The notes beneath the pieces were generated by a model. It saw only the letters and a program-made list of their open reading frames with translations. It was not told where the DNA came from and ran no database searches. A program made the translations under genes and the position numbers. From NCBI GenBank assembly GCA_027459665.1, contig DAIDHN010000039.1, positions 1 to 37,636 of the forward strand: a DNA stretch of 37,636 nucleotides, read 5' to 3'. Origin of the DNA: Chthonomonadaceae bacterium (GTDB lineage Bacteria > Armatimonadota > Chthonomonadetes > Chthonomonadales > Chthonomonadaceae). This document shows positions 10,979-35,055 of the stretch, in pieces (within the stretch, counting starts at the first letter, position 1; the number at the start of each line of letters is the position of its first letter).

Positions 10979-10985
10979 GATATTC

Positions 10986-11606
10986 TCAGTACTTTTCAGC
11001 AGCAAGCTCTATAAGCGCAGAAAGTCCCGCGTGCCCGATGCCTTCCATAATTTCCCTGTCGCTGCTTTCCAGCAGATGTATTTTCATATCGGCAAATGCC
11101 TCGCGCAGCATCTCTTCTGTGTAGAGCTGCTCTATTGCAGAAGGGCCGCCGGTTTTGTACTGCAGCTGTTCGGGGCGGTACCCTGCCAGCAGCAGCAGCC
11201 CGCCGGGTTTGAGGGCGTTTTTCATTTTTTCAAACAGGTCTCTTCTTTCGGCAGGGCTGGCGAACTGTATGAATATTCCCACCACCGCATCGTAGCCGCC
11301 TGCGGGCCAGTTCCATTCAAACAGGTCGGCCTGTTCAGCGTGCAGCGAAACACCCCGCTGCCGGGCAAGCATGCGTGCGCGCTCAATGGCTGTGGCAGAA
11401 GCTTCCAGGGTATGTACGTCAAAGCCCTGCTGTGCCAGAAAAACTCCGTTGCGCCCTTCACCGTCTGCCACGCAGAGCACTCTGGCTCCTGCCGGCAGGC
11501 GGCTGCATTCTCTTGTCAGAAAGTCGTTTGGCTCGGTGCCAAACAGATAGCTGTCTGTTGAGGCGTAGCGTTTTTCCCATTCGCTGTTTCTGTGTGACGC
11601 GGGCAT
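10986..11606 (-). CDS. Class I SAM-dependent methyltransferase (TehB-like)
   Basis: A 206-residue Rossmann-fold methyltransferase. Motif I is ARVLCVADGEGRNGVFLAQ, in which the usual DxGxGxG is written DGEGRNG as in TehB/thiopurine-type enzymes. The acidic end of strand 2 follows in VHTLEASATAIERA. Motif IV is YDAVVGIFIQF and motif VI is ALKPGGLLLLAGY. The N-terminal SEWEKRYASTDSYLFGTEPNDFL is typical of the TehB/Methyltransf_25-type small-molecule methylases. The start is ATG 11606 with GGAGGA just upstream. It leads a minus-strand set with the GH99-like and PhyH genes; the substrate is unknown. Confidence 0.88.
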   Translation of the reverse strand: MPASHRNSEWEKRYASTDSYLFGTEPNDFLTRECSRLPAGARVLCVADGEGRNGVFLAQQGFDVHTLEASATAIERARMLARQRGVSLHAEQADLFEWNWPAGGYDAVVGIFIQFASPAERRDLFEKMKNALKPGGLLLLAGYRPEQLQYKTGGPSAIEQLYTEEMLREAFADMKIHLLESSDREIMEGIGHAGLSALIELAAEKY

Positions 11607-11654
11607 AGTTCCTCCGGGGCTGTAAAATATCTACCATGTATACGCACTGCAGAG

Positions 11655-11672
11655 AGATTATGTGCATAATCT
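11655..11672. promoter_or_regulatory. 18-bp palindrome in the divergent intergenic region
   Basis: AGATTATG-TG-CATAATCT is a perfect 8-bp inverted repeat with a 2-nt centre. It lies 49 bp from the methyltransferase start and 97 bp from the second PhyH start. It can control both divergent units. The form fits a dimeric regulator site; the regulator is not in the window as far as can be seen. Confidence 0.5.
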
Positions 11673-11768
11673 GCCTGATATTGTGCAGGAATAACGCCGC
11701 CGGCATGGAACAGGTGAGACAGTATGCGGCGAGGCTGTTTGTACCCAGCCAGAGAAGGAGAGGAGAGC

Positions 11769-12575
11769 ATGGAAAGGCGTATTCCTGCTGCACTGGATGA
11801 TTACCTGTTTGATTTGAACGGCTGGCTTCTGCTGAAGAATGCCATTGAGCCTGCACTGCTGCAGCGTTTGAACCAGGCATTCGATGACTTTCCGCTTCTA
11901 GAGCCTATGCAGTGGTGGGGCAACGCCCAGCGGCGCGACTATACTGGCGATACAGGGTTTGAGCTGCACAACTGCGTAGAGGCAGGCGAGCCGTTTGAAG
12001 AGCTGATAGATCATCCCTCCTGGCTGGAATATGTGCGGCGGTACTGCGGCGAGCAGCATTCTTATGTAGAGGGGCTTTTTATAGATGAGTGCATTGCCTC
12101 AAAGCGCATCAGCGGCGGGCACCACCCTGCGCATTCAGGCGGGTACCGCGGCGCGCTGCGAGGCGCATACGGGTACCGGCACGGCGTGTTTCGCTGCGGG
12201 CAGGTGAATGTGCTGGCCGCGCTGACAGATATTGGACCGGGCGACGGCCCTACCATGGTGGTTTCTGCCAGCCACAAGGCAAATCTGCCGCATCCGCTGC
12301 AGGGAGATTATGCAAAAGGGGAGCGAATGGACAGCCTGCCGGGGGCAGAGCCTGTGTATATGCAGAAAGGCGATGCTCTTTTGTTTGTAGACGGGCTGAT
12401 GCATGGGGGCAGCAGCCGCACCAATACGGGTGAGCGCAGGGTAGTTATTTACCGGTACGGGGTAAGCTGGGCCGCCACGCGTTTTGGCTATGTGTATTCT
12501 GAGGCTCTTCTGAGCCGTGTTACTGCAGAAAGAAGGCGTATTTTGCAGCCAATTCCCCCTAACCTGCCCGGCTAG
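11769..12575 (+). CDS. PhyH-like dioxygenase family protein with atypical metal motif
   Basis: A 268-residue protein of the PhyH-like group. The core VNVLAALTDIGPGDGPTMVV-SASHKANLPHP and the distal LMHGGSSRTN...RRVVIYRYG blocks are clear. At the place of the iron-binding HxD the sequence reads HPAHSGGYRG, so the carboxylate position is Gly124 after His122. Related proteins with an HGG/HSG motif occur widely in planctomycete-like genomes to my knowledge. Lack of the carboxylate is a feature of Fe/2-oxoglutarate halogenases but may also mean a different ligand or an inactive protein. The start is ATG 11769 with GGAGAGGAGAG upstream. Only 3 bp separate its stop from the stop of convergent mnmE. 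Confidence 0.8.
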   Translation: MERRIPAALDDYLFDLNGWLLLKNAIEPALLQRLNQAFDDFPLLEPMQWWGNAQRRDYTGDTGFELHNCVEAGEPFEELIDHPSWLEYVRRYCGEQHSYVEGLFIDECIASKRISGGHHPAHSGGYRGALRGAYGYRHGVFRCGQVNVLAALTDIGPGDGPTMVVSASHKANLPHPLQGDYAKGERMDSLPGAEPVYMQKGDALLFVDGLMHGGSSRTNTGERRVVIYRYGVSWAATRFGYVYSEALLSRVTAERRRILQPIPPNLPG

Positions 12576-12578
12576 CCT

Positions 12579-13967
12579 TTATTTGCCCACGCAAAAGTCT
12601 GCAAATATTCGGTGCAGCAGCTCGTCGGGGGCGGTTTCCCCGGTGATGAGGCCAAGAGAATCGAGGGCGCCGCGCAAGTCTATGGCAGTGAAATCGGGGG
12701 GCAGGCTGCTGCAGAGAGTTTGCTGTGCAGCATACAGGCACTGCATTGCCTGCTCAAGCGCCTGCTGGTGCCTTGTGCGCACTATCAGCGGCGCATCGCT
12801 TTCCTGCCGGGCATAGTCTGGCAGCAGAGCCTGTTCCAGGTTCTCCATTCCTTCGCCTGTTTTTGCCGATACTTTTACCATGGGCGTATGGGCGGGCAGG
12901 TACTGCCGCGCCATTTTTTCTGTGACTTCGCCCTCTGCCAGGTCTGTTTTGTTGAGGGCGGCAACCAGGCGCGCACCGCTGTTGAGTGCGCTTTGCAGGG
13001 CGGGCATATCCTGCTCGGCGCTCCAGTGGGCGGCATCCAGCACCAGCAGGGCGGTGTCTGCAGCCTGGGCGGCCTCTTTGGCGCGTTCTATGCCCATCTG
13101 TTCTATGGGGTTTTGCGCAGTGCGAATGCCGGCAGTGTCTACCAGCGAAACAGGAATGCCCTGCAGAGAGAGGCTCTCTTCGAGCGTATCGCGGGTAGTG
13201 CCGGGCAGATCGGTTACAATGGCGCGCTCTGTGCGCAGCAGGCGGTTGAGCAGCGAAGATTTGCCTGCGTTGGGCTTGCCCAGCAAAACCACCCTCAGGC
13301 CGCTGCGCATCAGTTCTCCGCGCTGCGCCCCCTGCAGCAGACCCTGAATGTGCTGCACTGCCGTCTGCAGCTGCAGGTCTGCCGCGGCGCGGTCCCACTC
13401 GCCGGTTTCCTCGCTGAAATCTATGCTCACTTCAATGGCTGCCAGCATACCAAGCAGAGTGTGGCGCAGCGTTTCCACCTGTTCTGAAAGCGCGCCCTGC
13501 AGCAGCCGTGAAGCCGCGCGCTGCGCCTGCTGTGTGCGGGCCTCAATGAGGTCGGCAACGGCCTCTGCCCGGGCAAGGTCAAGCTTGCCGTTGAGAAATG
13601 CGCGCAGTGTGAATTCGCCGGGGTCTGCCAGCCTGGCTCCTGCCTGCAGCACGGTATGCAGCACCCTCAGTGTGTTGGCTCTGCCGCCGTGACACGATAT
13701 TTCGGCAGTGTTCTGGCCGGTGTATGAGCGGGGTGCGTAAAACAGGGCCAGCATGCCTGTATCTACTATTTCTTTGTTTGCGTCTGCAATGCACCCATAC
13801 TGCAGCATGCCGTGCCTTTCACGTATTTTGCCAGAGGCAGGGCGAAATACCCTTGCAGCAATATCAGCTGCATTTGCACCGCTGATGCGCACCAGCGCTA
13901 CGCCTCCTTCTCCCGGGGGGGTGGCTGCGGCGGCAATGTCATCGTGCAGGGCAAAACTGCTATTCAC
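12579..13967 (-). CDS. mnmE: tRNA modification GTPase MnmE
   Basis: MnmE, together with MnmG, forms the 5-carboxymethylaminomethyl modification at the wobble uridine of several tRNAs. The 462-residue length is standard. Visible are the N-terminal formyl-THF-binding domain opening (DDIAAAATPPGEGGVALVRISG), the GTPase P-loop GKPNAGKSS (about 230-238), the switch motif DLPGTTRD (about 253-260) and NKTD. The invariant C-terminal CxGK (CVGK) is present. The start overlaps the end of the corC-like gene by 8 bp, so it is the last gene of the minus-strand operon. Confidence 0.98.
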   Translation of the reverse strand: MNSSFALHDDIAAAATPPGEGGVALVRISGANAADIAARVFRPASGKIRERHGMLQYGCIADANKEIVDTGMLALFYAPRSYTGQNTAEISCHGGRANTLRVLHTVLQAGARLADPGEFTLRAFLNGKLDLARAEAVADLIEARTQQAQRAASRLLQGALSEQVETLRHTLLGMLAAIEVSIDFSEETGEWDRAAADLQLQTAVQHIQGLLQGAQRGELMRSGLRVVLLGKPNAGKSSLLNRLLRTERAIVTDLPGTTRDTLEESLSLQGIPVSLVDTAGIRTAQNPIEQMGIERAKEAAQAADTALLVLDAAHWSAEQDMPALQSALNSGARLVAALNKTDLAEGEVTEKMARQYLPAHTPMVKVSAKTGEGMENLEQALLPDYARQESDAPLIVRTRHQQALEQAMQCLYAAQQTLCSSLPPDFTAIDLRGALDSLGLITGETAPDELLHRIFADFCVGK

Positions 13968-15318
13968 TTTCTTCTGCTTCCCCGTGCTCCGGCTCTGGGT
14001 GCAGTTTTTCCATGCGCACTGTTTGTATGCGGCGGCCGTCGGTGTTGGCTACGGTAAACTGCATCTGTTTCCAGGTTACGGTCTCATTTTGCAGGGGCTG
14101 TCTGCCAAGCAGGGCAAACACAAAACCGCCCAGCGTATCGGCATCTGTTTCGGGCAGATCGGTTTCGAGCAGGCTGTTCATGTCGTTCAGGCTAATGCGC
14201 CCGTCCAGTAAAATGCTGCCGTCTTCCATGTGGTGTATCATTGGTTCTTCGTGGTCGTATTCATCCTGAATTTCACCTACAATTTCCTCCAGCAGGTCTT
14301 CTATGGTAACCAGCCCCGAAACCACACCGTATTCGTCTCTCACCAGCGCTATCTGCTGCCTGCTGTGGCGAAATTCGGTAAGCAGTTCATCCACTTTCTT
14401 GCTTTCGGGTATGAAGTACGCTGGCCGCATAATGCTTTGCAGCTTTCCGTTGTCTTGCGGCACAAGTGCAAGCAGGTCTTTTGCATGCACAATGCCCACG
14501 ATATTGTCGAGGTCTTCTTCATACACCGGTATTCGCGAGTGGCCCGATCTTTGCACGGTTTCCACCAGTTTTGCGGGCGGTTCGGTAACCTGGCAGGCGC
14601 TGATGTCTATGCGCGGCGTCATTACCTTGCGCACCACAGTGCCGGCAAAATCAAGTACCGAGTGAATCATCTCTTTTTCTTCTGGTTCAATGCCCCCGGT
14701 TCCTTCGCTGGCATCTACCATAATTTTCAGTTCGTCTTCGTTTACGGTTGGTATGCTGAATTCTGCCGCGCCTCCCAGCGGGCGCAGCAGCAGATTGGTG
14801 CAGGCGGTGATGGCAAGCACCAGAGGGGTAAGCAGGGTTTGCAGCCAGTAAAGCGGATACACTGCAAGCAGCGCAATGCGTTCAGAATGTTTTACCGCGA
14901 GGCTTTTGGGCGCAATCTCTCCCAGCACCAGAGTAAGCAGTGCAACGGGTATGCTTACCGCCAGCAGCGCCAGAGATTGTGCGGGCAGGTGCGGTGCGGC
15001 GGCGTGAATGAGTGCTGCAATGGGTTGTACCGCACTTGCTGCGGCAAGGCCGGATGAGAGCGCAGCAATGAGCGTGACCCCCAGTTGTATGGTGGCCATG
15101 AGCAGGGTGGGCTTTTGCAGCATTTTCTGCACCAGCGCTGCACTGCTGTTTCCTTCTTCCGCCAGATGCTGAATGCGCGTGCGCCTCACGGTAATGAGTG
15201 CATATTCGGCGAGAGAGAAGAGGGCATTGAATGCGATGAGCAGCAGCACCATGCCCATTTCCCATAGAATGCGGGAGGGGTAAACGGCGGCTGCGGTTTC
15301 AGGGAGCGGAGGGTGCAA
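13960..15318 (-). CDS. CNNM/CorC-HlyC family membrane protein with CBS pair
   Basis: A hemolysin C/CorC-like transporter-type protein of about 452 residues. It has an N-terminal DUF21 (CNNM) membrane domain with NALFSLAEYALI and LTLVLGEIAPKSLAVKHSE. A tandem CBS pair follows (VMTPRIDISA, HSRIPVYEEDLDNIVGIVHAKDLL, EYGVVSGLVTIEDLLEEIVGEIQDE), then a CorC_HlyC domain at the C-terminus. Members are linked to Mg2+/Co2+ or Na+ handling; CBS domains sense adenosine nucleotides. The start is doubtful: the first possible codon is TTG 15318, which overlaps the upstream gene by 20 bp, and ATG 15258 is an alternative. It sits between dgkA-PAP2 and mnmE, as CorC-like genes often lie near ybeY. Confidence 0.9.
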   Translation of the reverse strand: MHPPLPETAAAVYPSRILWEMGMVLLLIAFNALFSLAEYALITVRRTRIQHLAEEGNSSAALVQKMLQKPTLLMATIQLGVTLIAALSSGLAAASAVQPIAALIHAAAPHLPAQSLALLAVSIPVALLTLVLGEIAPKSLAVKHSERIALLAVYPLYWLQTLLTPLVLAITACTNLLLRPLGGAAEFSIPTVNEDELKIMVDASEGTGGIEPEEKEMIHSVLDFAGTVVRKVMTPRIDISACQVTEPPAKLVETVQRSGHSRIPVYEEDLDNIVGIVHAKDLLALVPQDNGKLQSIMRPAYFIPESKKVDELLTEFRHSRQQIALVRDEYGVVSGLVTIEDLLEEIVGEIQDEYDHEEPMIHHMEDGSILLDGRISLNDMNSLLETDLPETDADTLGGFVFALLGRQPLQNETVTWKQMQFTVANTDGRRIQTVRMEKLHPEPEHGEAEESE

Positions 15319-22880: not shown

Positions 22881-25800
22881 ATGAAATATGGCGAACTGTT
22901 CGACCTAAACCCAATCCAATCCGTCATCCAGCTTGAGCAGGCCGATCGCAAAACCGAAGCGCGGCGGCTCGTTAGATCGTTTGTAATCACCCCGAGCCTG
23001 GGCGATGCCATTAAGGCAGTGGTCTTGCCACAGCTGGACTTCGAGAGCGGTGCGGAGGGCAAAGGCATTTTCGTGGTAGGTAATTACGGTACTGGTAAGA
23101 GCCACGTAATGAGCTTTCTCTCTATCATCGCAGAGGACGAAGCTGCCGTTGCCAGCGTGCAGGACGACTCATGGCACGCACCGCTGAGGAAGTTTGCCGG
23201 CAAATATTGCGTAAAGCGCTGCGAAATTGGCGGCACGCTCATGAATTTCTATCAGATCGTGGCCGAACAACTTGAGGAACTTGCTAAAACCTGCAACTTC
23301 AGTTTCACGTTTCGAGACCAACGCGATTTCTCCAATGTGAAAACCGAGTTCGAACGATTTATGACGGAGTTTGATAAGCACTTCCCGGGTAAGGGAGTGC
23401 TGCTCCTGATTGATGAACTACTGGAGTTCCTAAAAACCCGCAACGATAGCGACCTTGTTCTCGATCTCGCTACGCTAAGAGCGCTGGGCGAGTTTTGCGA
23501 CGGGTCGCGCTTTTCACTCATGGCAGGTATACAGGAACTGCTCTATGAGAACCGCCGCTTCAACCACATAGCAACCGATGTTAACAGGGTAAGGCAGCGG
23601 TTTTACGACTTCGTTATTGATAACAAGGGTGTAAAGCAGCTTATAGAACAGCACCTATTTCGCAAGACCGACGAACAGCGCCAGAAAATCCGGGAGATAA
23701 TGCTCACGCAGGCGCACCTGTTTGAGGTGGTCGGCCCGGAAATCGAGCAGTTTGTTGCGCTCTTCCCTGCCCACCCCCGGTTCATAGATGAGTTTCAGCG
23801 CGTGTCTGTGGTAGAACGGCGCGAAATCCTCACTATTCTCTCCAACGAGGCAAAGCTTTACGCGGAGAGAGAGCTGAATGAGCGCCATATAGATCTCATT
23901 ACTGCCGATGAATACTGGAAGCATATCGAAGCCGATGCGGGCCTCAACGCCAACGCTGAGGTGCGCACCATTAAAGCAAACGTGGCAGTGCTTAAGGGGA
24001 AGATAGAGAACGGTCTGCCAGCAAACGAGGACAAGCCTGCAGCGGAAAAACTGGTGGAAGCCCTTGCTGTGCACCGGCTTACCACGCCTAATATTACGGA
24101 CGCAACGGGGCTTACGCCAGAGAACCTTAAAAATAACCTGCTGTGGTATACACCCATCCCCATGGACGACCCGCAATTTCTTACCAGGGCAGCGCAGCGG
24201 CTATTAGATAGCACGCGAAAAGCTGCCAACGGGCAGTTCCTGGCCCTTTCGGAAGGCAGCGGGCAGTACTACATCGACCCAACGCGGGTAGTGGATTATG
24301 AACAGGATGTCGCCACCACGGCGGAAACACTGGCTAAACATGTGGTACAGCGCTATCTCAACGAGGTGATAACCCGGGCGCTAGAGATAGACAACGATAA
24401 GCCCGTACTCGAGGGTCGGCTTTGGAGTTACAACCTTCTCTGGCAGGACACCAATGTGGAGCGGCCGGGCTGGCTCTTCTTCGGGTATCCAAACCAGAGG
24501 TCTACCGCCAAGCCGCCAAAGGATTTCTACATCTTCATAATACCGTCCGAACGTATAATGGGCAAATCTGACGAAACAATCCCTAACAATCCGGATGAAA
24601 CCTACTGGTTTTTCGAGGATTTCCCGGCCGCAAAGTGCGAGAACTCCGTGAACCTGGCAGCAGATGCGCCGGATACCTTCCTGGATTCGTTACGCAAATA
24701 TGCGGCTGCTTGCGAACGGGCACGCAGCTGTCCACCCGGTGACGATCAGAAGGCGTTCGAGGGTATTGCTGGAAATATCCTGAAGAACCTGGTAGCGAAT
24801 TTCGCAGAGCACGCTGGCGATTGGCTCCGCGTTAAATTCAACGGCCAGACGAAAACCTTCAGTGAGTGGGTGCTCGAACTAGACCCTGGCCAGGCCAACT
24901 CACTCGTCAAAACCAGGTTTGATATCATATCCCAGGCAATGTTCGCACCGCATTTCGCTAGCCGGTACCCCAACTATCCGGTTTTCCGCTTTAAGGTTCA
25001 GGAGACCTCGCGTGCGCAGAGTGCCGCCAGCGCAATTGAGGTGATATGCGAAACCGGCATGAAGCCGCAAAATGGCCACGCGGTGCTAGCGGCCCTTAAG
25101 CTCTATAAAGACGACGCCTTTACACCAGACCAATCGCCCTGGCTAGGCATTATCCGCGAAAAGCTACGGAAGCTAGGTGCTAACCAGTTCATCAACAACA
25201 GCGAGCTTTTTGAGCAGGAGGAGGACAAGTGGTGGTTTAAAGGGGAGCGGCTGGAAGCGGAATGGCTGCTCGTGGTGCTAGCCGCTGGCGTGCGCGCTGG
25301 CGACATGCACCTGTACGGTAAACACAACAAGTTCGATGCCGCCAACCTGGCAGAGTTCTACAAGAACATAAAATCGCACGACGACGTTACACGAATTGGT
25401 AGGCCAAGCGAGCTGCAAATGGATATCTGGGAAAGGCTGTTCAAGCTGTTCGCCTTAAATATCGGCCTGCTTTCCAATGCTCGTACGCACGAGACGGCCG
25501 TAATCGAATTCAACAAAAAAGTAATAAGCCGTATCAACGAACTGGTGGAACTGTCGGAAGGATTTAAAGCGCCGCTGCCATTTGCGGAAGAGAGGGCTGC
25601 GGAAGGAATTGCGGAGCAGAGTAAATCCATTGAGATCGCGAAACGGATGCTGGAGACCTACCTGCAGCCGATAAACACCAAAGGGAAGATGCAGAACATC
25701 AGGATAGAGGATGCAGAGTTAAGCGACCTGGAACAGCAGCTGCAGGTGTGCGGTTCGCTCAGGGCGTTGCGCGAGTTCCTGGATCGTAATGACGTTCATA

Positions 25801-26633
25801 CACGGATAAACGCACTGGAGCGGTGGCGGCCAATGCTCGCGGAGACCAACGAGTCGTTCGCAGCGGCATGTGGGAGCTTTACGGATGTACTAAACGCGCT
25901 CTACATGCAGCCGCAAACGCTGAATGACGTTCACGAAACCGTGAAAGCTCAGCTAACCAGTGCAACGGAGGCAGCGGTCACTCTTTATCAGAACCTTCAT
26001 CGGCGATTCCGGCTGGACAAGGCCGCAGACGACCGCAAAAAGGCGCTGATAAATGGAAACAGCCTGAAGAAACTTAATAGGCTTACGAACATAGAGGTGC
26101 TCAACAGCGACAAGCTGAACACCATTCAAGCCACGTTGGGTACCCTTGTGTCGTGTAGCGGCTGTTTAGAAAGCGCCCTGCTCAAGAGTGCACGGTCGGT
26201 CTGCACCATGTGCGGGTTTAACCCAAAGGATAATCGGTCAGAAGTGGGCGCCGCAGAGGCTCTGGAAGCATGTGAAACGGACATTGAGGAGCTGCTGAGG
26301 GTCTGGGAACAGCAGCTGCTTAGCGAATTGGAGGATCCTTCCGCAGAGTCGTCGCTCACCCTTTTGTCACAGGAAGCACGCGAAGTGCTTCAGAATTTTG
26401 TAAACGCCCGGAAGCTGCCCAACGAGGTTACCGACGGCTTTACCAGCGCGGTGAACACCGTACTGAAGGGGCTAAAACGCCGTGCAATTCACGCAGAGGA
26501 ATTCGCGAAGACGGTGCTAGGCGATGGCGTTCCTCTTAAGCCGGACGAGGTGCAGACCCGTTTTGAAAAGTGGCTGAAGGAGCGTATTGGGCACGATGAC
26601 CAGAGCGCGGTGCGTTTCATTCTGGTAGACTAA
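22881..26633 (+). CDS. brxC: BrxC/PglY-like large ATPase (DUF6079-like)
   Basis: A 1250-residue P-loop ATPase. The N-terminus MKYGELFDLNPIQSVIQL and the Walker A GNYGTGKSH (about 67-75) are as in BREX BrxC/PglY ATPases. Walker B is LLLIDELLEF (about 174-183). A long helical body follows. Near the C-terminus is a four-Cys cluster C1092-x2-C1095-x12-C1108-x2-C1111, which should bind zinc. In BREX, BrxC/PglY is a large ATPase core component required for defence. The start ATG 22881 has AGGTG upstream, and the TTG at 22848 is poorer. It is the first gene of the cassette, followed by 315 bp without a gene. The family is named from memory. Confidence 0.85.
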   Translation: MKYGELFDLNPIQSVIQLEQADRKTEARRLVRSFVITPSLGDAIKAVVLPQLDFESGAEGKGIFVVGNYGTGKSHVMSFLSIIAEDEAAVASVQDDSWHAPLRKFAGKYCVKRCEIGGTLMNFYQIVAEQLEELAKTCNFSFTFRDQRDFSNVKTEFERFMTEFDKHFPGKGVLLLIDELLEFLKTRNDSDLVLDLATLRALGEFCDGSRFSLMAGIQELLYENRRFNHIATDVNRVRQRFYDFVIDNKGVKQLIEQHLFRKTDEQRQKIREIMLTQAHLFEVVGPEIEQFVALFPAHPRFIDEFQRVSVVERREILTILSNEAKLYAERELNERHIDLITADEYWKHIEADAGLNANAEVRTIKANVAVLKGKIENGLPANEDKPAAEKLVEALAVHRLTTPNITDATGLTPENLKNNLLWYTPIPMDDPQFLTRAAQRLLDSTRKAANGQFLALSEGSGQYYIDPTRVVDYEQDVATTAETLAKHVVQRYLNEVITRALEIDNDKPVLEGRLWSYNLLWQDTNVERPGWLFFGYPNQRSTAKPPKDFYIFIIPSERIMGKSDETIPNNPDETYWFFEDFPAAKCENSVNLAADAPDTFLDSLRKYAAACERARSCPPGDDQKAFEGIAGNILKNLVANFAEHAGDWLRVKFNGQTKTFSEWVLELDPGQANSLVKTRFDIISQAMFAPHFASRYPNYPVFRFKVQETSRAQSAASAIEVICETGMKPQNGHAVLAALKLYKDDAFTPDQSPWLGIIREKLRKLGANQFINNSELFEQEEDKWWFKGERLEAEWLLVVLAAGVRAGDMHLYGKHNKFDAANLAEFYKNIKSHDDVTRIGRPSELQMDIWERLFKLFALNIGLLSNARTHETAVIEFNKKVISRINELVELSEGFKAPLPFAEERAAEGIAEQSKSIEIAKRMLETYLQPINTKGKMQNIRIEDAELSDLEQQLQVCGSLRALREFLDRNDVHTRINALERWRPMLAETNESFAAACGSFTDVLNALYMQPQTLNDVHETVKAQLTSATEAAVTLYQNLHRRFRLDKAADDRKKALINGNSLKKLNRLTNIEVLNSDKLNTIQATLGTLVSCSGCLESALLKSARSVCTMCGFNPKDNRSEVGAAEALEACETDIEELLRVWEQQLLSELEDPSAESSLTLLSQEAREVLQNFVNARKLPNEVTDGFTSAVNTVLKGLKRRAIHAEEFAKTVLGDGVPLKPDEVQTRFEKWLKERIGHDDQSAVRFILVD

Positions 26634-26948
26634 CCGTGCAATACGCGGCAAGTCCTGCGGTTGCGTACGCGCTGTAGCAAATAGGCAACATGCCCCATCG
26701 AGAAGCGCAGGATTGCGACGTTGTTATGCTAATTCCTGGTTCATATTTGGGATTACGAGGGCATTATTCCAATTTAGGCGTTAAAATTGGGACAACAAAA
26801 CCCTTATTCCATTTTTTTAATTAAGGAAATGCGCGCGGCTCCGGTCCGCTTACGGTTAATTATCAGTGCCGAGCGAAATTGCGGTGAGCAGCTAGGCGCA
26901 TAGATTTACCTGCCTTGTATTCATGACTGAACTGAGGAAAACCTGACT
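26634..26948. other. 315-bp AT-richer gap between brxC-like and pglX-like genes
   Basis: No open frame of note and no BrxF-like gene is found. CCAATTT-N8-AAATTGG (26769-26790) is a clear inverted repeat, and the A/T-rich part at 26759-26825 repeats TTATTCCA twice. TCCTGCG at 26653 and CGCAGGA at 26706 are inverted but far apart. The region may carry a terminator for the first gene and a promoter for the second, so the methyltransferase could be expressed separately. Confidence 0.55.
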
Positions 26949-29738
26949 ATGAGTGATGATCCACAGATGAGCTTTTTGGGCGACGTGCCTGCCGCACCTG
27001 GCACGGAAGCGCGCAACGCGGAGCGTGAGAAGTACCTGGCCCTGCTTGCGGAAAAGCTGAAGGACCCAGAGTTCCGCAAGATAGAGGGTTTTCCTATTGG
27101 AACCGATGAGGCCATCCTGGCGCTTAGCGATCCTCCCTACTACACGGCGTGCCCCAACCCGTTCATAGAGGAGTGGCTGGCGGAGCACGCAAAGCCTTAC
27201 GACGCCGCTACCGACGACTACCACCGCGAGCCGTTCGCTACGGATGTGAGCGAGGGCAAGAACGACCCCATCTATAACGCGCACAGCTACCACACCAAGG
27301 TTCCACACAAGGCGATCATGCGCTACATCCTTCACTACACCCAGCCAGGCGACGTGGTGTACGATGGCTTTTGCGGCACCGGCATGACGGGCGTGGCCGC
27401 ACAGATGTGCGGCGATAAAGCGCAGGTGGAATCGCTGGGGTACCGCGTGTTGCCAGATGGCACCATCCTGGATAATGCAGGTGCGCCATTCAGCAGGCTG
27501 GGCGCGCGCAAGGCCATTCTCAACGACCTCTCACCTGCCGCAACCTTCATTGCCTACAACTACAACATGCCAGTTGACGCTGAAGCATTTGAACGGGAGG
27601 CGAAACGGATCCTTGCCGAAGTTGAAGAGGAGTGCGGATGGATGTACCGTACGCTGCACGACGCCACGCCAGAGGAGACTGCGCGTGTTGCGGCCGCCAT
27701 TGAGGTTTGCCAGACGGCTGATGAACTCCGAAATCTCTGGAGGCGGCTGGAAGCACGGGACCAGGAATTTTACGTACCTGGTTCGCGCATGCAGGCGGGC
27801 CGCATAAACTACACCGTGTGGAGCGACGTTTTTATATGTCCGTCATGCGGCGGCGAGATCATCTTTTGGGATGCAGCGGTGGACAAAGACGCAGATAAGG
27901 TACGGGATATTTTTAGCTGCCCCCACTGCCTAGCGGAAACCACAAAACGTAGATGCGCCCGGGCCCAACACACATTTTACGATGACGCGCTCGGTAAAAC
28001 CATCACCCAGGCTCGACAGGTTCCGGTTCTCATAAACTATTCCATTGGAAAAAATCGCTATGAAAAGCGGCCTGACACATACGACAATAGCCTGATCATA
28101 GCGATAAACAAACTTCCAATTCCGCACTGGTTCCCAACAGACAGAATGCCTGATGGTGAAGAGAGTCGGCGGAACGATCCTGCGGGCCTCACCCACGTGC
28201 ACCACTTCTACACCAATAGAAATTTGCTGTCTGAAGCCATGTTTCTTGCAGCCGCGCGCAACGCCGGCCTCTCCGAACTACAATTTTTAGTTTCCGCGCT
28301 CAATGTACACGTCACGAAAATGCGGCGATACCAGCCGGTTAAACCTGGTGGAACACCAAACCTCGCCGGCACTTTGTTCGTGTCGTCTTTGCCGGTGGAG
28401 TTGACCTTCTTCGACGGTATGCCCCGGAAGGTTAGTGACATCAAAAATGCTATGAGACCGCAGAATTGCACCAATAATCTTGTTTCAACCGGTTCGGCAA
28501 GCGAAACCGCAATGGCGCGTTGCGATTATTTGGAATACATCTTTACCGATCCGCCATTCGGAGGCAACCTCATGTACTCGGAATTAAACTTCCTTTGGGA
28601 GTCGTGGCTCAGGGTGAAGACGAACAACAAACGAGAGGCCATCACTAACGAGATCCAAAAAAAGGGAATACTAGAATATCAGGCAATTATGACTTCCAGT
28701 TTTAAGAATTACTATCGCTCGTTAAAACCGGGCAGGTGGATGACCGTGGAGTTTCATAACAGCGAGAACGCGGTATGGAATAGCATTCATGAAGCAATTT
28801 TACGCGCAGGCTTCCTCATTGCAGACGTACGGGTGTTAAATAAACAGCAAGGAACCTTCAAACAAGTAACTACGAGCGGCGCAGTAAAAGCGGACCTTGT
28901 CATCTCGTGCTACAAGCCGCACCATGCCTTTGAAGAGCGATTTCGCGCACTGCAAGGCAAACCGGAAGGGGTGGTCGAATTCCTGCAGGAGCACCTCGTT
29001 ATGCTGCCCGTGGCGCCGCTCAGCGCTGGAGGCAACCTAGAGATGGTTGCTGAGCGCACACGCCACCTGCTCTACGACCGCATGCTCGCCTACCACCTGC
29101 AGCGCGGCGCACGCATCCCGTTATCCGCCAGCGACTTCTACGCGCTGCTAGACGAGCAGTTTGTTGAGCGCGATGGCATGTACTTCCTGCCAGAACAGGC
29201 GTCCCGCTTCGACGCTATCAAGGCGCGCGGTGTAAAAACCGAGCAGTTCTCCATTTTTGTAAGCGACGAAAAGAGCGCGGTGCAGTGGGTGCGCGCCCGC
29301 CTCACAGAGCATCCCCAAACGCTGGGTGAGCTTACGCCCTCGTTCATGCAGGAGATGCGCGAATGGGACAGCCATGAGCCCCGTCCAGAGCTGCGCGACC
29401 TACTTCGCGAGTACTTCATCGAAGTCGGCGGTGTATGGCGCGTCGCGGATCCTAACAATGAGAAGGACTTGGAGCAAGTACGCCGCAACGCGCACCTCAA
29501 GCTCTTCCGCGAATACGCCAACAACACAACACAGCTAAAAACCTTCCGCAAGGAGGCCGTGCTAGAGGGCTTCCGTTACTGCTGGCAAACCAGGCAGTAC
29601 AGCGTTATCACAGCAGTATGCGAAAAGATGCCGCTCAAAGTACTGCAGGACACCCACGAGTTCGTCCAGTTCTACGACATCGCAAAAGACCTTGCGGGCA
29701 CGACTACTGGGCAGGCTGCGTTTAGCTGGGACGTCTGA
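26949..29738 (+). CDS. pglX: PglXI-like DNA methyltransferase with inserted zinc ribbon
   Basis: A 929-residue DNA methylase. Motif I is YDGFCGTGMTG (about 138-148) and motif IV TDPPFGGNLMY (Asp534), the N6_N4_Mtase-type active site for amino-group methylation. The two motifs lie nearly 390 residues apart; between them CPSC (297-300) and CPHC (324-327) form a likely zinc ribbon. In BREX the methylase marks host DNA at a nonpalindromic adenine site and is also needed for defence. The start has GAGGAA about 10 nt upstream. The middle third of the gene is poorer in GC than both ends. The last codons and the stop are duplicated in the spacer behind the gene. Confidence 0.88.
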   Translation: MSDDPQMSFLGDVPAAPGTEARNAEREKYLALLAEKLKDPEFRKIEGFPIGTDEAILALSDPPYYTACPNPFIEEWLAEHAKPYDAATDDYHREPFATDVSEGKNDPIYNAHSYHTKVPHKAIMRYILHYTQPGDVVYDGFCGTGMTGVAAQMCGDKAQVESLGYRVLPDGTILDNAGAPFSRLGARKAILNDLSPAATFIAYNYNMPVDAEAFEREAKRILAEVEEECGWMYRTLHDATPEETARVAAAIEVCQTADELRNLWRRLEARDQEFYVPGSRMQAGRINYTVWSDVFICPSCGGEIIFWDAAVDKDADKVRDIFSCPHCLAETTKRRCARAQHTFYDDALGKTITQARQVPVLINYSIGKNRYEKRPDTYDNSLIIAINKLPIPHWFPTDRMPDGEESRRNDPAGLTHVHHFYTNRNLLSEAMFLAAARNAGLSELQFLVSALNVHVTKMRRYQPVKPGGTPNLAGTLFVSSLPVELTFFDGMPRKVSDIKNAMRPQNCTNNLVSTGSASETAMARCDYLEYIFTDPPFGGNLMYSELNFLWESWLRVKTNNKREAITNEIQKKGILEYQAIMTSSFKNYYRSLKPGRWMTVEFHNSENAVWNSIHEAILRAGFLIADVRVLNKQQGTFKQVTTSGAVKADLVISCYKPHHAFEERFRALQGKPEGVVEFLQEHLVMLPVAPLSAGGNLEMVAERTRHLLYDRMLAYHLQRGARIPLSASDFYALLDEQFVERDGMYFLPEQASRFDAIKARGVKTEQFSIFVSDEKSAVQWVRARLTEHPQTLGELTPSFMQEMREWDSHEPRPELRDLLREYFIEVGGVWRVADPNNEKDLEQVRRNAHLKLFREYANNTTQLKTFRKEAVLEGFRYCWQTRQYSVITAVCEKMPLKVLQDTHEFVQFYDIAKDLAGTTTGQAAFSWDV

Positions 29739-29934
29739 ATCACGGATTAAACGGATTACACGGATTACACTGATGGTGCACTGGCACAGGTACTGCCTAT
29801 TACGGCAAGCTTAGGTAGCATGAAAGACCTGCCAGGCACGACTACTGGGCAGGCTGCGTTTAGCTGGGACGTCTGAATCACGGATTAAACGGATTACACG
29901 GATTACACCGATGGCGCACTGGCACAGGTACTGC
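29685..29934 (+). repeat. 112-bp segmental duplication including the methyltransferase 3' end
   Basis: 29685-29796 and 29823-29934 are near-identical copies, 138 bp apart, differing at only a handful of positions. The first copy covers the last 18 codons of the methyltransferase gene, its stop and about 60 bp of spacer; the second repeats the same gene end without a gene. Each contains three 9-bp units of the type CGGATTAAA/CGGATTACA. Confidence 0.9.
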
Positions 29935-30093
29935 GATAGTGCCTCAAGCTGAATAACCGCGAACAACGGTATTACCGTGAAATCAGTGTAATCTGTCTAA
30001 TCCGTGATTCAGACATCAATTACGCGACACTTATCACGAACAACGGTATTACCGTGCAATCAGTGTAATCCAACTAATCCGTGATTCAGACAT
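29733..30093. repeat. Four copies of a 17-mer and two 56-bp direct repeats
   Basis: GTCTGAATCACGGATTA occurs at 29733-29749 and 29871-29887, and inverted at 29998-30014 and 30075-30091. The inverted copies are parts of a 56-bp direct repeat (29961-30016 and 30038-30093, period 77). Each of these begins with GAACAACGGTATTACCGTG, which holds a near-palindrome. The first 17-mer contains the TGA stop of the methyltransferase. Facing copies could pair into a long stem. This fills most of the 390-bp gap 29739-30128; no gene is seen in it. Confidence 0.88.
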
Positions 30094-30128
30094 TTTACAG
30101 ATTCCTATAAAACGCAGGACTAAAACCG

Positions 30129-32777
30129 ATGTATGACCACGATGACATAATGTGGTGCCCTACCATAAACAGCTGGGTGAGGGTGCTTGAGGTGCGCACG
30201 CTGTTCGGTTCCAGCGTGGCGCGTGTCGTGCCGGAGGGCGGAAGCACCGTTCACACTGTGCCGGTGGAGACGCTGCAAAGCGGGCGTCCGTTCGATATCC
30301 AGGCGGCACTGGCGACGGTCGCTGGTGCCAGGACGTGGAGCGCATTGGGCTCCGACCTGTTTCTTGCACCTCTTGTTAGTGAGGTGATACCGCTGCCTCA
30401 CCAGTACCGTGTATTGCGCTCCGCCATGGCCGGGTTTCCTGTTCGTATGATGCTTGCCGATGAGGTCGGCATGGGCAAAACTATTGAAGCTGGGCTACTC
30501 CTAAAAGAACTGAAGTTGCGCGGCATGATAGAGCGCATTCTCGTACTTGCGCCTAAAAGTCTGCTGCTGCAATGGATAGTAGAAATGGACAGCCTGTTTA
30601 ACGAGCCGTTTGAACTTGTGCTTCCAGGGGATTGGAGCGCGGCCGTAGGCTTACGGGGGGAGAACGCATGGAAGCGACATCCTCAAATTGTAACATCCGT
30701 GGACTCCGTGAAGCCCAAAGAGGCACAGCGCGGTTGGTCGCTAGAAAAGATCGCACGGTACAACCTTGAGCGGTTCCACGACATAGTGGGCGCAGGGTGG
30801 GACCTGGTTATCATTGACGAGAGCCACAAAATCGCTGGGGCAAGCGATGACGTGTCGCGCTATGAGCTTGCTAAAGAGTTGGCGAAAGCGTCGCCGCACC
30901 TGCTGTTGCTCACTGCAACCCCTCACAGCGGCAAATCCGACGCGTTCAGGCGGCTGCTCGCACTTATAGACCCTGGGGTATTCACCGACGGTGTTACGCT
31001 CACTCGCGAATTAACCACGACAGTGGTTATTAGAACGGAGAAGCGTACTGCCCTGGATGCCGATAGCAAGCCGCTGTTTGCCCCTCGCTCTACCAGGCTT
31101 CTAAAAGTACCGTTTGGCCCTCGGCACGATGCCCAGCAGACACTCTATGAAGAGGTGTCTGCCTACGTTAGAGAAGGTTACAAGGCGGCGGAGCGAGATG
31201 GAGATAGAGGCTCGCACCTGCTGCTCATACTCATTCAGCGGCTGGTGAGCAGCTCCACAAGGGCGGTTCGCCATTTTCTGGAACAGCGCCTGCAGAAGCT
31301 GCTGGAAGGCAGCACAACCGAGGAAGCGGACGGCACCGACCGCCTGCCGGATGATGCAGACCTGGATGAGTTGGCGCAGACCGTGCTTTTATCTGAACCT
31401 TCGAACGAGCGAGAGCGCGAAGATGTAGAGAAGCTTTTGGCGTTGGCCATACGTGTAGAGAACGAGGGTCCCGACGCCCGTGCAGAAGCCCTCTATGAGC
31501 AGATGAAGCAGATTGCCCTCGCCGAAGAGACGCCTAGCACCAAATTCCTGGTGTTTACAGAATTTAGAGCCACCCAGACAATGCTAAAGGAGTTCCTGGA
31601 ACAACGAGGTTACCCCGTCGCTATACTAAACGGTGCAATGGAGATCTCCGAACGGCGTGCTGCGCTAGACACCTTCAGGAAGGAGGCGCAGATCCTCGTC
31701 TCTACCGATGCCGGTGGTGAAGGGCTCAACATGCAGTTTGCCCATGTCGTCTTTAACTACGACCTGCCGTGGAACCCCATGCGTGTTGAACAGCGCATTG
31801 GTCGGGTGGACCGCATAGGGCAGTCGCGGCCCGTTACTGCCACGAACCTTGTGCTTCAAAATTCCGTGGAGGCCCGCCTATACGATATCTGGCAGGAGAA
31901 GCTGGAGACCATCCTGCTGGAATTTGGCGTAGACAAAACGGGTGACGTTCTTGACTCATCGGATGCCAGTGCGCAATTTGAGAGGCTGGCGCGCACTGCA
32001 TTGCTGAATCCGGAGGCATTAAACGATGAGGTAGACCTGGTAGTGATGGACATTCGCAAGGCAGCGGCAAAGGCTTCCCAGCTGCACTCCCTATACACCA
32101 GCCCCGTGGAAGAACGGGATAGGGTGCCCTCCGTGCCGCTGCACGCGTGGATACGCACAATGGCCGGTGAAGTTTCCACGTCAGACACTGTGCAGGGCGA
32201 GCAGATTGATTTATCGGCGCAGGTCATTGAGCGCATCAACGCACTAACGCCTTTTTTTGCGGTTGGCAAACCCATTCCACGGCTCAAGGTGGAGGGTCTG
32301 GGTTTTCCACTCGATGGCTGGTTTTCTCTGTGGAAGGTAGGTATAGCGGAAGGCATTTGGCGCCAGCAGAACGTGTTTGCCCTCTTTAACACACCGGAAG
32401 GAAAATCGTTTAGCAAATCTGCACAGCGCGTGTGGGACGAGCTGGCTGCTAACCAGGTCACCATTACCGTAGAGGGCGAAACAGATGATTACGACCTGGA
32501 TAAAATTCAGGAGCAGGCTGAGCGAGAATCCATCGAGCTATACAACTCGGTCGTACGCAAGGCGCAAACGCGGGCAAAGCACAGGATCTTCGCGCTAGAA
32601 ACGAGCTACCTGGCGCGCAAGTCGTCGCTCGCCCGCATTGGCCTGGATGCAGTGCGAGAGTCACGACGCCGGGAGCTGGAGACGGAGTATGCAACGCGCC
32701 GGGCAGAAATCAATCTGGTGACACAGGCACTGCCGGATATAACGTGCCTCTTCCTTGCAAGGATAGTGGCGGAATGA
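30129..32777 (+). CDS. brxHII: SNF2-family helicase, BrxHII-like
   Basis: An 882-residue superfamily 2 helicase/translocase of the SNF2/HepA type. Motif I is DEVGMGKT (111-118), motif II is DESH (230-233), motif III is LLTATPHSGK, and motif VI is QRIGRVDRIGQ (555-565). The N-terminal part before motif I is a short beta-rich domain and the C-terminal part is helical. Position and type agree with BrxHII of BREX type 3. It would move along or remodel DNA in the defence complex; the exact action is not established. The start has AGGA about 10 nt upstream and lies right after the repeat-filled spacer. Its stop overlaps the next start as ATGA. Confidence 0.9.
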   Translation: MYDHDDIMWCPTINSWVRVLEVRTLFGSSVARVVPEGGSTVHTVPVETLQSGRPFDIQAALATVAGARTWSALGSDLFLAPLVSEVIPLPHQYRVLRSAMAGFPVRMMLADEVGMGKTIEAGLLLKELKLRGMIERILVLAPKSLLLQWIVEMDSLFNEPFELVLPGDWSAAVGLRGENAWKRHPQIVTSVDSVKPKEAQRGWSLEKIARYNLERFHDIVGAGWDLVIIDESHKIAGASDDVSRYELAKELAKASPHLLLLTATPHSGKSDAFRRLLALIDPGVFTDGVTLTRELTTTVVIRTEKRTALDADSKPLFAPRSTRLLKVPFGPRHDAQQTLYEEVSAYVREGYKAAERDGDRGSHLLLILIQRLVSSSTRAVRHFLEQRLQKLLEGSTTEEADGTDRLPDDADLDELAQTVLLSEPSNEREREDVEKLLALAIRVENEGPDARAEALYEQMKQIALAEETPSTKFLVFTEFRATQTMLKEFLEQRGYPVAILNGAMEISERRAALDTFRKEAQILVSTDAGGEGLNMQFAHVVFNYDLPWNPMRVEQRIGRVDRIGQSRPVTATNLVLQNSVEARLYDIWQEKLETILLEFGVDKTGDVLDSSDASAQFERLARTALLNPEALNDEVDLVVMDIRKAAAKASQLHSLYTSPVEERDRVPSVPLHAWIRTMAGEVSTSDTVQGEQIDLSAQVIERINALTPFFAVGKPIPRLKVEGLGFPLDGWFSLWKVGIAEGIWRQQNVFALFNTPEGKSFSKSAQRVWDELAANQVTITVEGETDDYDLDKIQEQAERESIELYNSVVRKAQTRAKHRIFALETSYLARKSSLARIGLDAVRESRRRELETEYATRRAEINLVTQALPDITCLFLARIVAE

Positions 32778-34498
32778 AATGGGTAGAGGCGATAGTCAGC
32801 GAGCTGTACCCGTCATTCGGTGGATTACCCACGTTCTGCGAGGACGACGACGCGCTTCTAGATATTCCAGAGGTAAGGGAAGCGCTGCGCAAGGCGGGAA
32901 TGACAATTGACGAGTGGGACGGTAGCCCGGAATCACTCGCCGCGCTGAAATGCCTTCAGCCTGATGAGCGCCCTTTGCTAATCGTAACTGACCCTACCCG
33001 CAAACATATCGTTACGGCGTGCCTTGAGAACTACCAGTGGACACCCATAGCCATTAGCGATATTATGCCCCGGTTTAACAATGAAATCGTGAAGTCGGTT
33101 CCCACCCTCCATTGGGACACCCTGCTGCAACTGCATACCACATTGCGATACCCGCTAAACCTCCCCGACACCGCACTCCTTGTAGCCCGCGCCGTTTACG
33201 GTGTTGATACTCTTGCCATTGAGTACGGCAATGGGTGGCTGCGCCTGCTTGGCTGTCTCGCTTGCGGCGACGACACCCTGCCGATGCCAGTTGCCCGCGA
33301 AGTTGCCCAGGCTGTAACATGGCCCACCGGCTTTAGCGCATCCGCTGCAGGTGAGGCTATGCAGTCGGCCGCGGCTGCCCGGGCCCTGCTATTGGATGCT
33401 GTAGCTAACGATGCGCAAGCCGTTGACGAAGCCGCGCCTTTCGTGAACGCCATTGTTTCGGTTCTTCGCGAAAGTAGGCAGACACAAACAGACGTGCATG
33501 TTGCATCGCTCGATTTACTCGCCCTATGGGCAGAACAGTGCAGCAGGCCGCAGGATGTGCTGCAGTTCGGCTTAAGTTACGCGGCGGCAGCGGTGCACGG
33601 TGATATTTCGCATGAGGTAAAACTAGAGGTCAACGCACTATTCTACCAGTGGCTAAAGCATAACTATGCACTTATGTTAAGTGCACCAAACCCGGAGACA
33701 CTGCGACTACCGCGCCTGTTGGACCGCCTGGATGCCGAGTACCAGAATGACAAGCTGCTGCTGCTGGTAATCGATTCCCTTTCGCTGCGCGCATGGGAAG
33801 TTACACGCCAACGGTGGCAAATCAGCGGCATAATTGGCACAGCAAACACGCGTGCGGCTTTTGCTGTACTGCCAACCATTACCTCGCTAAGCAGGCGCGC
33901 AATTTTCGAGGGCAGGTCGCCAAGCCAGTTTTTGGATGGAAATCACTCTGTTCGCCTGGAGCGGCAGTTATGGAAGGCGCGTTACCCGCGCGGCCATTAT
34001 CACACGGCTACCGAAGTTTTAGGCATTCAGGACAGCTTTGCCAGGTCGCGCAATCGTATATGTGTTGTGGATGTAACCTGGGATAAGCGCGGGCACAGTA
34101 TCGACCCACGCTTAGACTCGATAGAATCCGCCGCCGGCGTTTGGGCAGATAATACGAAACTTCAGGAAATTGTGAAAATGGGGCTGGAACATGGCTACCG
34201 CGTCATAATTACGGCTGACCACGGACAGGTTGAATGCCGGGGAACAGGGCGGCCAAACGTGGGCACACTGACGAATGAAAGATGCAGGCGAGTTATGATT
34301 TTTGACAACGAAGAAGTGTGCATGAGCTATGCAAACGAATCGGCGCAGCCGTTCCGCCCGTCAAACCTTTCAAAAGATATGTGGCCGCTGTTTGCTATGG
34401 GCACATGCAGCTTTGACCTGGAGGGGGCAGAATCTGTAAGCCACGGGGGTCTTACTATCGACGAGGTGCTGGTGCCTGTGGCAGAGGTGTTGAAATGA
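32774..34498 (+). CDS. pglZ: PglZ-domain protein (alkaline phosphatase superfamily)
   Basis: A 574-residue protein whose second half is the PglZ domain. It contains LLLVIDSLSLRAWE (Asp334), the following VLPTITSLSRRAIFEGRSP (Pro367 onward), ITADHGQVE (Asp482, His483) and a last HGGLTIDEVLVPVAEV (His557). This is the metal-binding order of the alkaline phosphatase superfamily. PglZ is the component common to all BREX types. The N-terminal half (1-320) is a helical region without a motif I can name. It overlaps the helicase stop and the following start by ATGA on both sides, so three genes are translated in a chain. Confidence 0.92.
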   Translation: MKWVEAIVSELYPSFGGLPTFCEDDDALLDIPEVREALRKAGMTIDEWDGSPESLAALKCLQPDERPLLIVTDPTRKHIVTACLENYQWTPIAISDIMPRFNNEIVKSVPTLHWDTLLQLHTTLRYPLNLPDTALLVARAVYGVDTLAIEYGNGWLRLLGCLACGDDTLPMPVAREVAQAVTWPTGFSASAAGEAMQSAAAARALLLDAVANDAQAVDEAAPFVNAIVSVLRESRQTQTDVHVASLDLLALWAEQCSRPQDVLQFGLSYAAAAVHGDISHEVKLEVNALFYQWLKHNYALMLSAPNPETLRLPRLLDRLDAEYQNDKLLLLVIDSLSLRAWEVTRQRWQISGIIGTANTRAAFAVLPTITSLSRRAIFEGRSPSQFLDGNHSVRLERQLWKARYPRGHYHTATEVLGIQDSFARSRNRICVVDVTWDKRGHSIDPRLDSIESAAGVWADNTKLQEIVKMGLEHGYRVIITADHGQVECRGTGRPNVGTLTNERCRRVMIFDNEEVCMSYANESAQPFRPSNLSKDMWPLFAMGTCSFDLEGAESVSHGGLTIDEVLVPVAEVLK

Positions 34499-35055
34499 AC
34501 CGCCGCATTCCCATTCTCTATGATGCGGCTTTACGGCCAGAGTGGATAGACTATGCCCTTGATCAGTACATGAGCGAACCGGGCGAGCGGGAACTTCGCG
34601 CAATACTTACAAACTACCTTCGCCCGCAAATTAAAGGCGCTGTTACTCTCGACAAGGCAGTGAGGCAGCTTCAGCGCACTGTTGGCTATAAGTCGCCGCT
34701 GCCCAAAGAGCGCCTCGCCGCTGTACACAGCAACATGAGCGCGCTCTCTCCCGATGAACGGGCAGACTATCGCATTTACCTCTTAACAGAATCCAGCCCC
34801 TTCCTGAGCGCCTGTATCAACGCAATGAAGAAGCTTGCGCTGCTAGGCTTGGATGGTATAGAGATCAAGCACATTTACGAGCGGGTATGCACACAGTTTG
34901 GCGACCGGTCTACTGTTTACCGGCGGGTGCGGTATGTGCTGCAGACACTGCTTTTGTGTGGCTTTGCAACCAACCGCGACCGCCGCTGGTTTCTGGTAGA
35001 CAGCACTTTTGCAACACGTTCGAGAGAGAATCAGTTTAAACCTGAGGGGCTGTAG
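34495..35055 (+). CDS. BrxA-like small protein (DUF1819-type), tentative
   Basis: A 186-residue, mostly helical protein at the place where BREX type 3 has brxA. It starts with RRIPILYDAALRPEWIDYALD and ends with a winged-helix-like part. That part includes ISAL-type helices before RSTVYRRVRYVLQTLLLCGFATNRDRRWFLV, in which a helix is followed by a strand carrying RDRRWF. BrxA proteins are small DNA-binding proteins by published structure work on other BREX types, as I recall. The start overlaps pglZ by ATGA. Function follows from position and shape; direct family similarity is not obvious to the eye. Confidence 0.7.
   Translation: MNRRIPILYDAALRPEWIDYALDQYMSEPGERELRAILTNYLRPQIKGAVTLDKAVRQLQRTVGYKSPLPKERLAAVHSNMSALSPDERADYRIYLLTESSPFLSACINAMKKLALLGLDGIEIKHIYERVCTQFGDRSTVYRRVRYVLQTLLLCGFATNRDRRWFLVDSTFATRSRENQFKPEGL

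What the first reader, a model, noticed from the sequence alone, without database searches (positions are those of the whole stretch)
22881..35055. BREX type 3-like locus without a visible brxF
Gene order BrxC-like ATPase, methyltransferase, SNF2 helicase, PglZ and a small BrxA-like protein agrees with BREX type 3, known to me as brxF-brxC-pglXI-brxHII-pglZ-brxA. No brxF is found upstream or in either spacer. The PglXI-type enzyme has its motifs nearly 390 residues apart with a zinc ribbon between, and the BrxC-like ATPase has a C-terminal four-Cys cluster. Either a minimal BREX-3 variant works without BrxF, or BrxF lies elsewhere.
Basis: partly seen in the sequence, partly recalled or inferred. 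Interest (0 to 1): 0.72.

Follow-up and report, generated by a model that had tools for sequence, protein, structure and literature searches.

The report
BREX type 3 lineage lacking BrxF
A five-gene bacterial anti-phage system of the BREX type 3 family, found in at least seven Armatimonadota and Myxococcota genomes, has no trace of the small BrxF linker protein that essentially every other type 3 system carries, so the family's supposedly universal core may be smaller than thought.

Summary
Window 22881-35055 encodes BrxC (DUF6079), PglXI, BrxHII, PglZ and BrxA, all matching BREX type 3 profiles, with intact catalytic motifs and no brxF. A BrxF profile finds nothing in the 99.86%-complete genome. 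This is not a private deletion: it belongs to a strongly supported clade (BrxC and PglXI trees) of seven genomes, five Armatimonadota and two Myxococcota. None has BrxF anywhere, whereas 47 of 47 other PglXI loci with visible brxC upstream region, four Chloroflexota composites aside, have it. No iSTAND domain is fused into PglZ or the other proteins. The clade also has BrxA cut to two HTH modules and PglZ about 80 residues shorter, and its BrxC and PglZ have diverged far more than PglXI. In type 1, BrxB (the BrxF counterpart) bridges BrxC to PglZ and breaking that contact abolishes defence (PMC13326643), so this clade must couple them differently. I favour direct BrxC-PglZ contact (inferred). 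The PglXI spacing and zinc ribbon are type 3 hallmarks, and the BrxC cysteine cluster is ordinary. New variant of a known kind; function untested.

The parts
22881..26633 (+). BrxC, 1250 aa, AAA+ ATPase (DUF6079); Walker A GTGKS at residue 70, Walker B IDELLE at 177, conserved Arg 240 (aligned with the arginine at the BrxC-BrxC ATP interface of Acinetobacter BrxC)
   Evidence: PADLOC PDLC02482 E 2.9e-280 full length; Pfam PF19557 2e-265; motifs; alignment to 9zn5
26634..26948 (+). spacer, no brxF; the same slot holds an Abi_2/PD-T4-5-like gene in two clade relatives (L101, L106)
26949..29738 (+). PglXI (BrxXI) N6-adenine methyltransferase, 929 aa, with target-recognition insert carrying CPxC/CPxC zinc ribbon
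   Evidence: PADLOC PDLC02541 1196 bits; motifs; type 3 hallmark in PMC12839542
29739..30128 (+). spacer made of repeats: 112-nt direct repeat that duplicates the pglXI 3' end, and a 57-nt direct repeat in inverse relation to it; no gene
30129..32777 (+). BrxHII, 882 aa SNF2/RapA-like helicase
   Evidence: PADLOC PDLC02500 E 5.9e-274; SNF2 and Helicase_C
32774..34498 (+). PglZ, 574 aa; small N-terminal alpha/beta domain, helical linker, phosphodiesterase domain with the metal-binding D/T/D/H/D/H/H set intact; no fused iSTAND domain
34495..35055 (+). BrxA, 186 aa; only two HTH modules, lacks the C-terminal third wHTH of other type 3 BrxA

Best explanation
This is a complete, probably functional BREX type 3 system of a distinct sublineage that lacks BrxF. 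PglXI marks host DNA at its recognition sites; BrxC is the ATP-driven DNA-binding motor and scaffold; BrxHII unwinds or translocates DNA; [quoted passage not shown] BrxA is the small DNA-binding regulator. In other type 3 systems BrxF is the counterpart of type 1 BrxB, which docks on the ATP pocket of BrxC and holds the PglZ N-terminal domain. In this clade I propose that PglZ contacts BrxC directly, through its retained N-terminal domain, and that BrxC oligomerisation is no longer capped by an iSTAND subunit. Shown: gene content, intact motifs, absence of BrxF from seven genomes, monophyly, clade-specific divergence of BrxC and PglZ, shortened BrxA and PglZ. Inferred: that the system restricts phage and methylates DNA, and how BrxC and PglZ are coupled.
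For: All five proteins match type 3 families, and the catalytic and metal-binding residues match those of type 3 relatives. BrxF is absent genome-wide in G000, G044, G088, G092, G095, G291, G368, while the same profile finds it at 3e-59 to 2e-49 in five positive-control genomes. BrxB is absent in six of the seven; in G291 (Myxococcota) a BrxB hit lies on another contig. BrxF lies in 47 other loci, nearly always directly beside brxC. The clade has SH-aLRT 100 in BrxC and PglXI. Identity to other type 3 loci against identity among those loci: PglXI 47/57, BrxHII 37/48, BrxC 28/46, PglZ 19/36 percent, so the presumed BrxF partners changed most. The PglZ N-domain has no added P-loop domain, and no protein has room for a 130-150 aa fusion. 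The BrxC-BrxC interface arginine is kept in every aligned BrxC. BrxC and BrxHII are under purifying selection (NG86 dN/dS 0.02-0.04; dS saturated or nearly so), while the PglXI recognition insert is at 33-50% identity against over 90% in the adjacent catalytic part in the same pair, as expected of a working system that changes target site. Type 1 biochemistry: PMC13326643, PMC12205998.
Against: No experiment on any member of the clade. Direct BrxC-PglZ contact is not modelled here, as no complex prediction was available. The divergence pattern could follow from the clade's overall fast evolution rather than from loss of BrxF. A non-homologous replacement encoded elsewhere cannot be excluded.
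Confidence: 0.55

Rival explanations
1. BrxF has been replaced by an unlinked host protein, or by an iSTAND protein too diverged to be recognised, so the six-part logic is unchanged.
For: BrxB/BrxF-type iSTAND proteins evolve fast (PMC12839542); only linked genes and profile hits were tested.
Against: No unassigned ORF of suitable size sits in the window locus, and no gene is shared at the brxF position among clade members. Profiles built from one BrxF group find the other at 70-100 bits, one archaeal case at 31.6, while the best score in clade loci is 7.6 bits. BrxC and PglZ of the clade are still found easily despite their divergence.
Confidence: 0.27
2. The locus is a decayed or reduced system, for example methylation only, that no longer restricts phage.
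For: Loss of BrxF, of the third BrxA wHTH and of part of PglZ; in type 1, breaking the BrxB-BrxC contact abolishes protection (PMC13326643).
Against: All active-site residues of BrxC, PglXI and PglZ are intact across the clade; the five genes are kept together in the window and in L021, L022, L023, L036 and L101; purifying selection and recognition-insert turnover.
Confidence: 0.12
3. The locus belongs to a neighbouring system: a type 3 BREX-related (BR, DUF499) system or DISARM class 1.
For: The helicase also scores against DISARM DrmD (332 bits), and type 3 BR systems have ATPase, MTase, helicase and PglZ (PMC12839542).
Against: ATPase is DUF6079 (884 bits) with no DUF499 hit; methyltransferase is best against PglXI; BrxA is present; DrmD score is far below its 610-bit cut-off.
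Confidence: 0.03
4. Artefact: brxF lost by misassembly.
For: Draft assembly in 118 contigs.
Against: The locus lies inside a 37.6-kb contig with normal genes on both sides, and seven independent assemblies, one with a 916-kb contig (G088), agree.
Confidence: 0.02

Closest known systems
BREX type 3 (brxF-brxC-pglXI-brxHII-pglZ-brxA)
   Same: Five of six core components, same order and strand, same PglXI insert with zinc ribbon, same BrxHII architecture family
   Different: No BrxF anywhere in the genome; BrxA has two instead of three HTH modules; PglZ about 80 aa shorter; BrxC and PglZ only 28% and 19% identical to other type 3 members
BREX type 1 (brxA-brxB-brxC-pglX-pglZ-brxL)
   Same: BrxC, PglZ and a two-HTH BrxA (7zge is the top fold match)
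   Different: Type 1 has BrxB bridging BrxC and PglZ, a different methyltransferase, and BrxL instead of an SNF2 helicase
BREX type 4
   Same: Reported iSTAND retention only 64% (PMC12839542), the only other type with frequent lack of it
   Different: Phosphorothioation instead of methylation; iSTAND when present is fused to the PglZ N-terminus
Type 3 BREX-related (BR) systems
   Same: ATPase, insert-type methyltransferase, SNF2 helicase, PglZ
   Different: DUF499 ATPase, BrxA not among the components listed for them, PglZ domain stands alone

Membership tests
BREX type 3 | BrxC ATPase of the DUF6079 family | tested here: met
BREX type 3 | PglXI methyltransferase with large recognition insert and four-Cys zinc finger | tested here: met
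   PMC12839542
BREX type 3 | BrxHII SNF2/RapA-like helicase | tested here: met
   PADLOC PDLC02500 910 bits, labelled BrxHI|BrxHII
BREX type 3 | PglZ with intact phosphodiesterase active site | tested here: met
   NCBIfam type 3 PglZ is the best model but below its cut-off
BREX type 3 | BrxA homologue | tested here: met
   weak by sequence (2.4e-10, first 148 of 238 positions), supported by fold; shortened
BREX type 3 | BrxF (iSTAND) gene upstream of brxC | tested here: not met
   absent from locus and genome; so it is filed as a BrxF-less type 3 sublineage, not as canonical type 3
BREX type 3 | phage defence and site-specific N6-adenine methylation | not testable with these tools
   needs phage challenge and methylome
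Type 3 BR system | DUF499 ATPase | tested here: not met
   no DUF499 hit in Pfam scan
DISARM class 1 | DrmD-type helicase over its curated cut-off | tested here: not met
   332 of 610 bits; the other DISARM genes were not searched for

The most novel reading that the evidence does not exclude
A stable, functional BREX sublineage in which the motor BrxC couples directly to the nuclease PglZ without any BrxB/BrxF-type bridge, showing that the iSTAND subunit reported as universal to BREX is dispensable and how it can be bypassed.
Probability: 0.45. Interest if true: 0.7.

Novelty: new variant of a known kind. Interest (0 to 1): 0.58.

Why it matters
Two 2026 papers describe the BrxB/BrxF-type iSTAND protein as consistently retained across BREX types (PMC12839542) and, in type 1, as the bridge between BrxC and PglZ whose loss abolishes defence (PMC13326643). 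A natural lineage without it, with otherwise intact genes in seven genomes of two phyla, makes it directly testable what the bridge is for and gives a five-gene minimal system for reconstitution.

Tried and rejected
Fused iSTAND in PglZ: rejected, since the N-terminal domain aligns with that of other type 3 PglZ and the model shows only the expected four-strand domain; BrxC, PglXI, BrxHII and BrxA were judged by length and by the BrxF profile only. BrxF as an unrecognised ORF in spacers or upstream: none. Conserved replacement at the brxF position: neighbours differ in every clade member with upstream sequence. Extra genes inside relatives (Abi_2-like, SLFN/AlbA_2, an unknown 166-aa protein): not shared across the clade. 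Clade members on plasmids: none, best BrxC identity 29%. Viral contigs: BrxC pattern scan found no relative. Wider spread: none in 324 Planctomycetota, 331 Chloroflexota, 327 Acidobacteriota genomes, where BrxC scores at most 904 bits against 1465-1999 in the two Myxococcota members. Empty site upstream of rpsL: the neighbours differ in each relative and no clean junction was found. Mapping the type 1 BrxC residue D204 (BrxB contact) onto this BrxC: that region did not align. dS is saturated for most pairs, so only the BrxC and BrxHII dN/dS values of one pair are quoted, and they are rough.

Full report
What is in the window. The genome is an Armatimonadota assembly: 3.67 Mb, 118 contigs, 99.86% complete; its nearest BREX relative is annotated as uncultured Chthonomonas. 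Between a DUF2628 gene and rpsL-rpsG-fusA lie five genes on one strand. They match BrxC, PglXI, BrxHI/HII, PglZ and BrxA of PADLOC, DUF6079, N6_N4_Mtase, SNF2/Helicase_C and PglZ of Pfam, and, below its curated cut-off, the type 3 PglZ model of NCBIfam. Order and strand are those of BREX type 3 without the first gene. The published type 3 definition has six core components, with a PglXI insert bearing a four-Cys zinc finger as its hallmark and BrxF as the iSTAND counterpart of BrxB (PMC12839542).

Is BrxF absent. No ORF of the right kind exists upstream or in the spacers. The NCBIfam BrxF model finds only noise in the genome. I took BrxF from 31 relatives and searched the whole genomes: no match in the window's genome and only noise in its BrxF-less relatives, while five control genomes gave E of 3e-59 to 2e-49. 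Sensitivity check: a profile of one half of BrxF diversity finds the other half at 73-94 bits, and the reverse at 71-102 bits except one archaeal case at 31.6. Type 1 BrxB is also missing from six of the seven genomes; in the Myxococcota genome G291 a BrxB hit lies on a different contig.

Is it one genome or a lineage. A scan of genome contigs with PglXI gave 80 loci. In the loci where the region upstream of brxC is visible, 47 carry a BrxF ORF (31 of these built the profile, the rest are independent). The exceptions are (a) the window, L022, L023, L036 and L101, with L021 cut at the contig end, and (b) four Chloroflexota loci of another architecture (see noticed in passing). A whole-genome BrxC search added a Myxococcota genome, G368, with 1465 bits against at most 904 for other loci; it too lacks BrxF near brxC and genome-wide, though only brxC and the start of pglXI lie on its short contig. 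Group (a) forms one clade with SH-aLRT 100 in BrxC and in PglXI rooted on related methyltransferases; G368 was placed by its BrxC score, not by tree. The seven genomes are five Armatimonadota and two Myxococcota, so the variant has probably moved between phyla or is old. Since iSTAND proteins occur in all BREX types, loss in this clade is the simpler reading, but the base of the type 3 tree is not resolved.

What changed along with BrxF. Mean identity of the clade to other type 3 loci, against identity among those loci: PglXI 47/57, BrxHII 37/48, BrxC 28/46, PglZ 19/36, BrxA 22/29 percent. In BrxC, residues 230-289 and 350-529 are well conserved within each group but differ between groups. PglZ is 556-600 aa against a median of 662. 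BrxA is 172-186 aa and aligns with the first two thirds of canonical BrxA; its model is confident (pLDDT 89), shows two HTH modules and has type 1 BrxA 7zge as top fold match. No protein gained length that could hide an iSTAND. PglZ keeps its N-terminal four-stranded domain, which in type 1 is the BrxB-binding part (PMC13326643), and has no added domain. Short PglZ is not by itself a sign of BrxF loss, since Bacillota with 480-510 aa PglZ keep BrxF.

Is it alive. Walker motifs, the BrxC-BrxC interface arginine, PglXI motifs and all PglZ metal ligands are intact across the clade. L022 and L023 are 83-86% identical in BrxC and BrxHII with dN/dS near 0.02-0.04 (rough), but their PglXI inserts are only 33-50% identical while the adjacent catalytic part is over 90%, the picture of a system that exchanges its recognition specificity.

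How it likely works. In type 1, BrxB sits in the ATP pocket of BrxC, caps BrxC oligomers, holds the first 98 residues of PglZ, and mutating the BrxB-BrxC contact removes protection (PMC13326643); PglZ is a metal-dependent nuclease (PMC12205998). With no bridge gene, direct PglZ-BrxC contact is the simplest reading, and it fits the unusual divergence of exactly these two partners. This step is inference. The main rival is an unlinked, unrecognised replacement.

Novelty. I found no paper in the held library that describes a BrxF-less type 3 lineage; PMC12839542 reports over 90% retention of the iSTAND in types other than 4 and calls it consistently retained. It is a new variant of a known kind, of moderate to good interest because it bears on a universality claim published months earlier.

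Noticed in passing
L049, L054, L066 (complete), L039 (partial); e.g. L054 4336-22261: Chloroflexota loci with NERD-UvrD helicase, BrxC (DUF6079), PglXI, an unknown 1200-1284 aa protein without any Pfam hit, a very large protein (1659-1726 aa; DruE/YprA-like helicase in L054, the one scanned) and a BrxA-sized gene (BrxA in L054), and without PglZ, BrxHII or BrxF: apparently a BREX-3/Druantia composite. I found no description of it in the parts read of two papers (PMC12839542, PMC12458937).
   Followed up: partly
window 29685-30093: The spacer between pglXI and brxHII is built of repeats: the last ~54 bp of pglXI plus a GGATTACAC-rich tail are duplicated 138 bp downstream, followed by two 57-bp copies in inverse relation. 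The 30-base core word occurs nowhere else in the genome with up to 3 mismatches.
   Followed up: partly
L101:8087-8953 and L106:11016-11909 (minus strand): The brxC-pglXI slot holds related Abi_2/PD-T4-5-like genes in two clade members, suggesting an accessory-gene hot spot at the position of the window's 315-bp spacer.
   Followed up: partly
A4 alignment; e.g. L026:3453-4049, L032, L033, L044: Many BrxF outside the Bacillota/Chloroflexota groups keep a full Walker A (GxxGxGKT-like), at odds with the description of BrxF as an inactive STAND NTPase.
   Followed up: no
L103:8653-11761: A canonical type 3 locus of another Armatimonadota genome (G217) has pglXI split into two ORFs with in-frame stops inside the match.
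   Followed up: no
L096 and L098, about 9953-15150: Methanomicrobiales type 3 loci carry two tandem pglXI genes (862 and 869-871 aa) after brxC.
   Followed up: no
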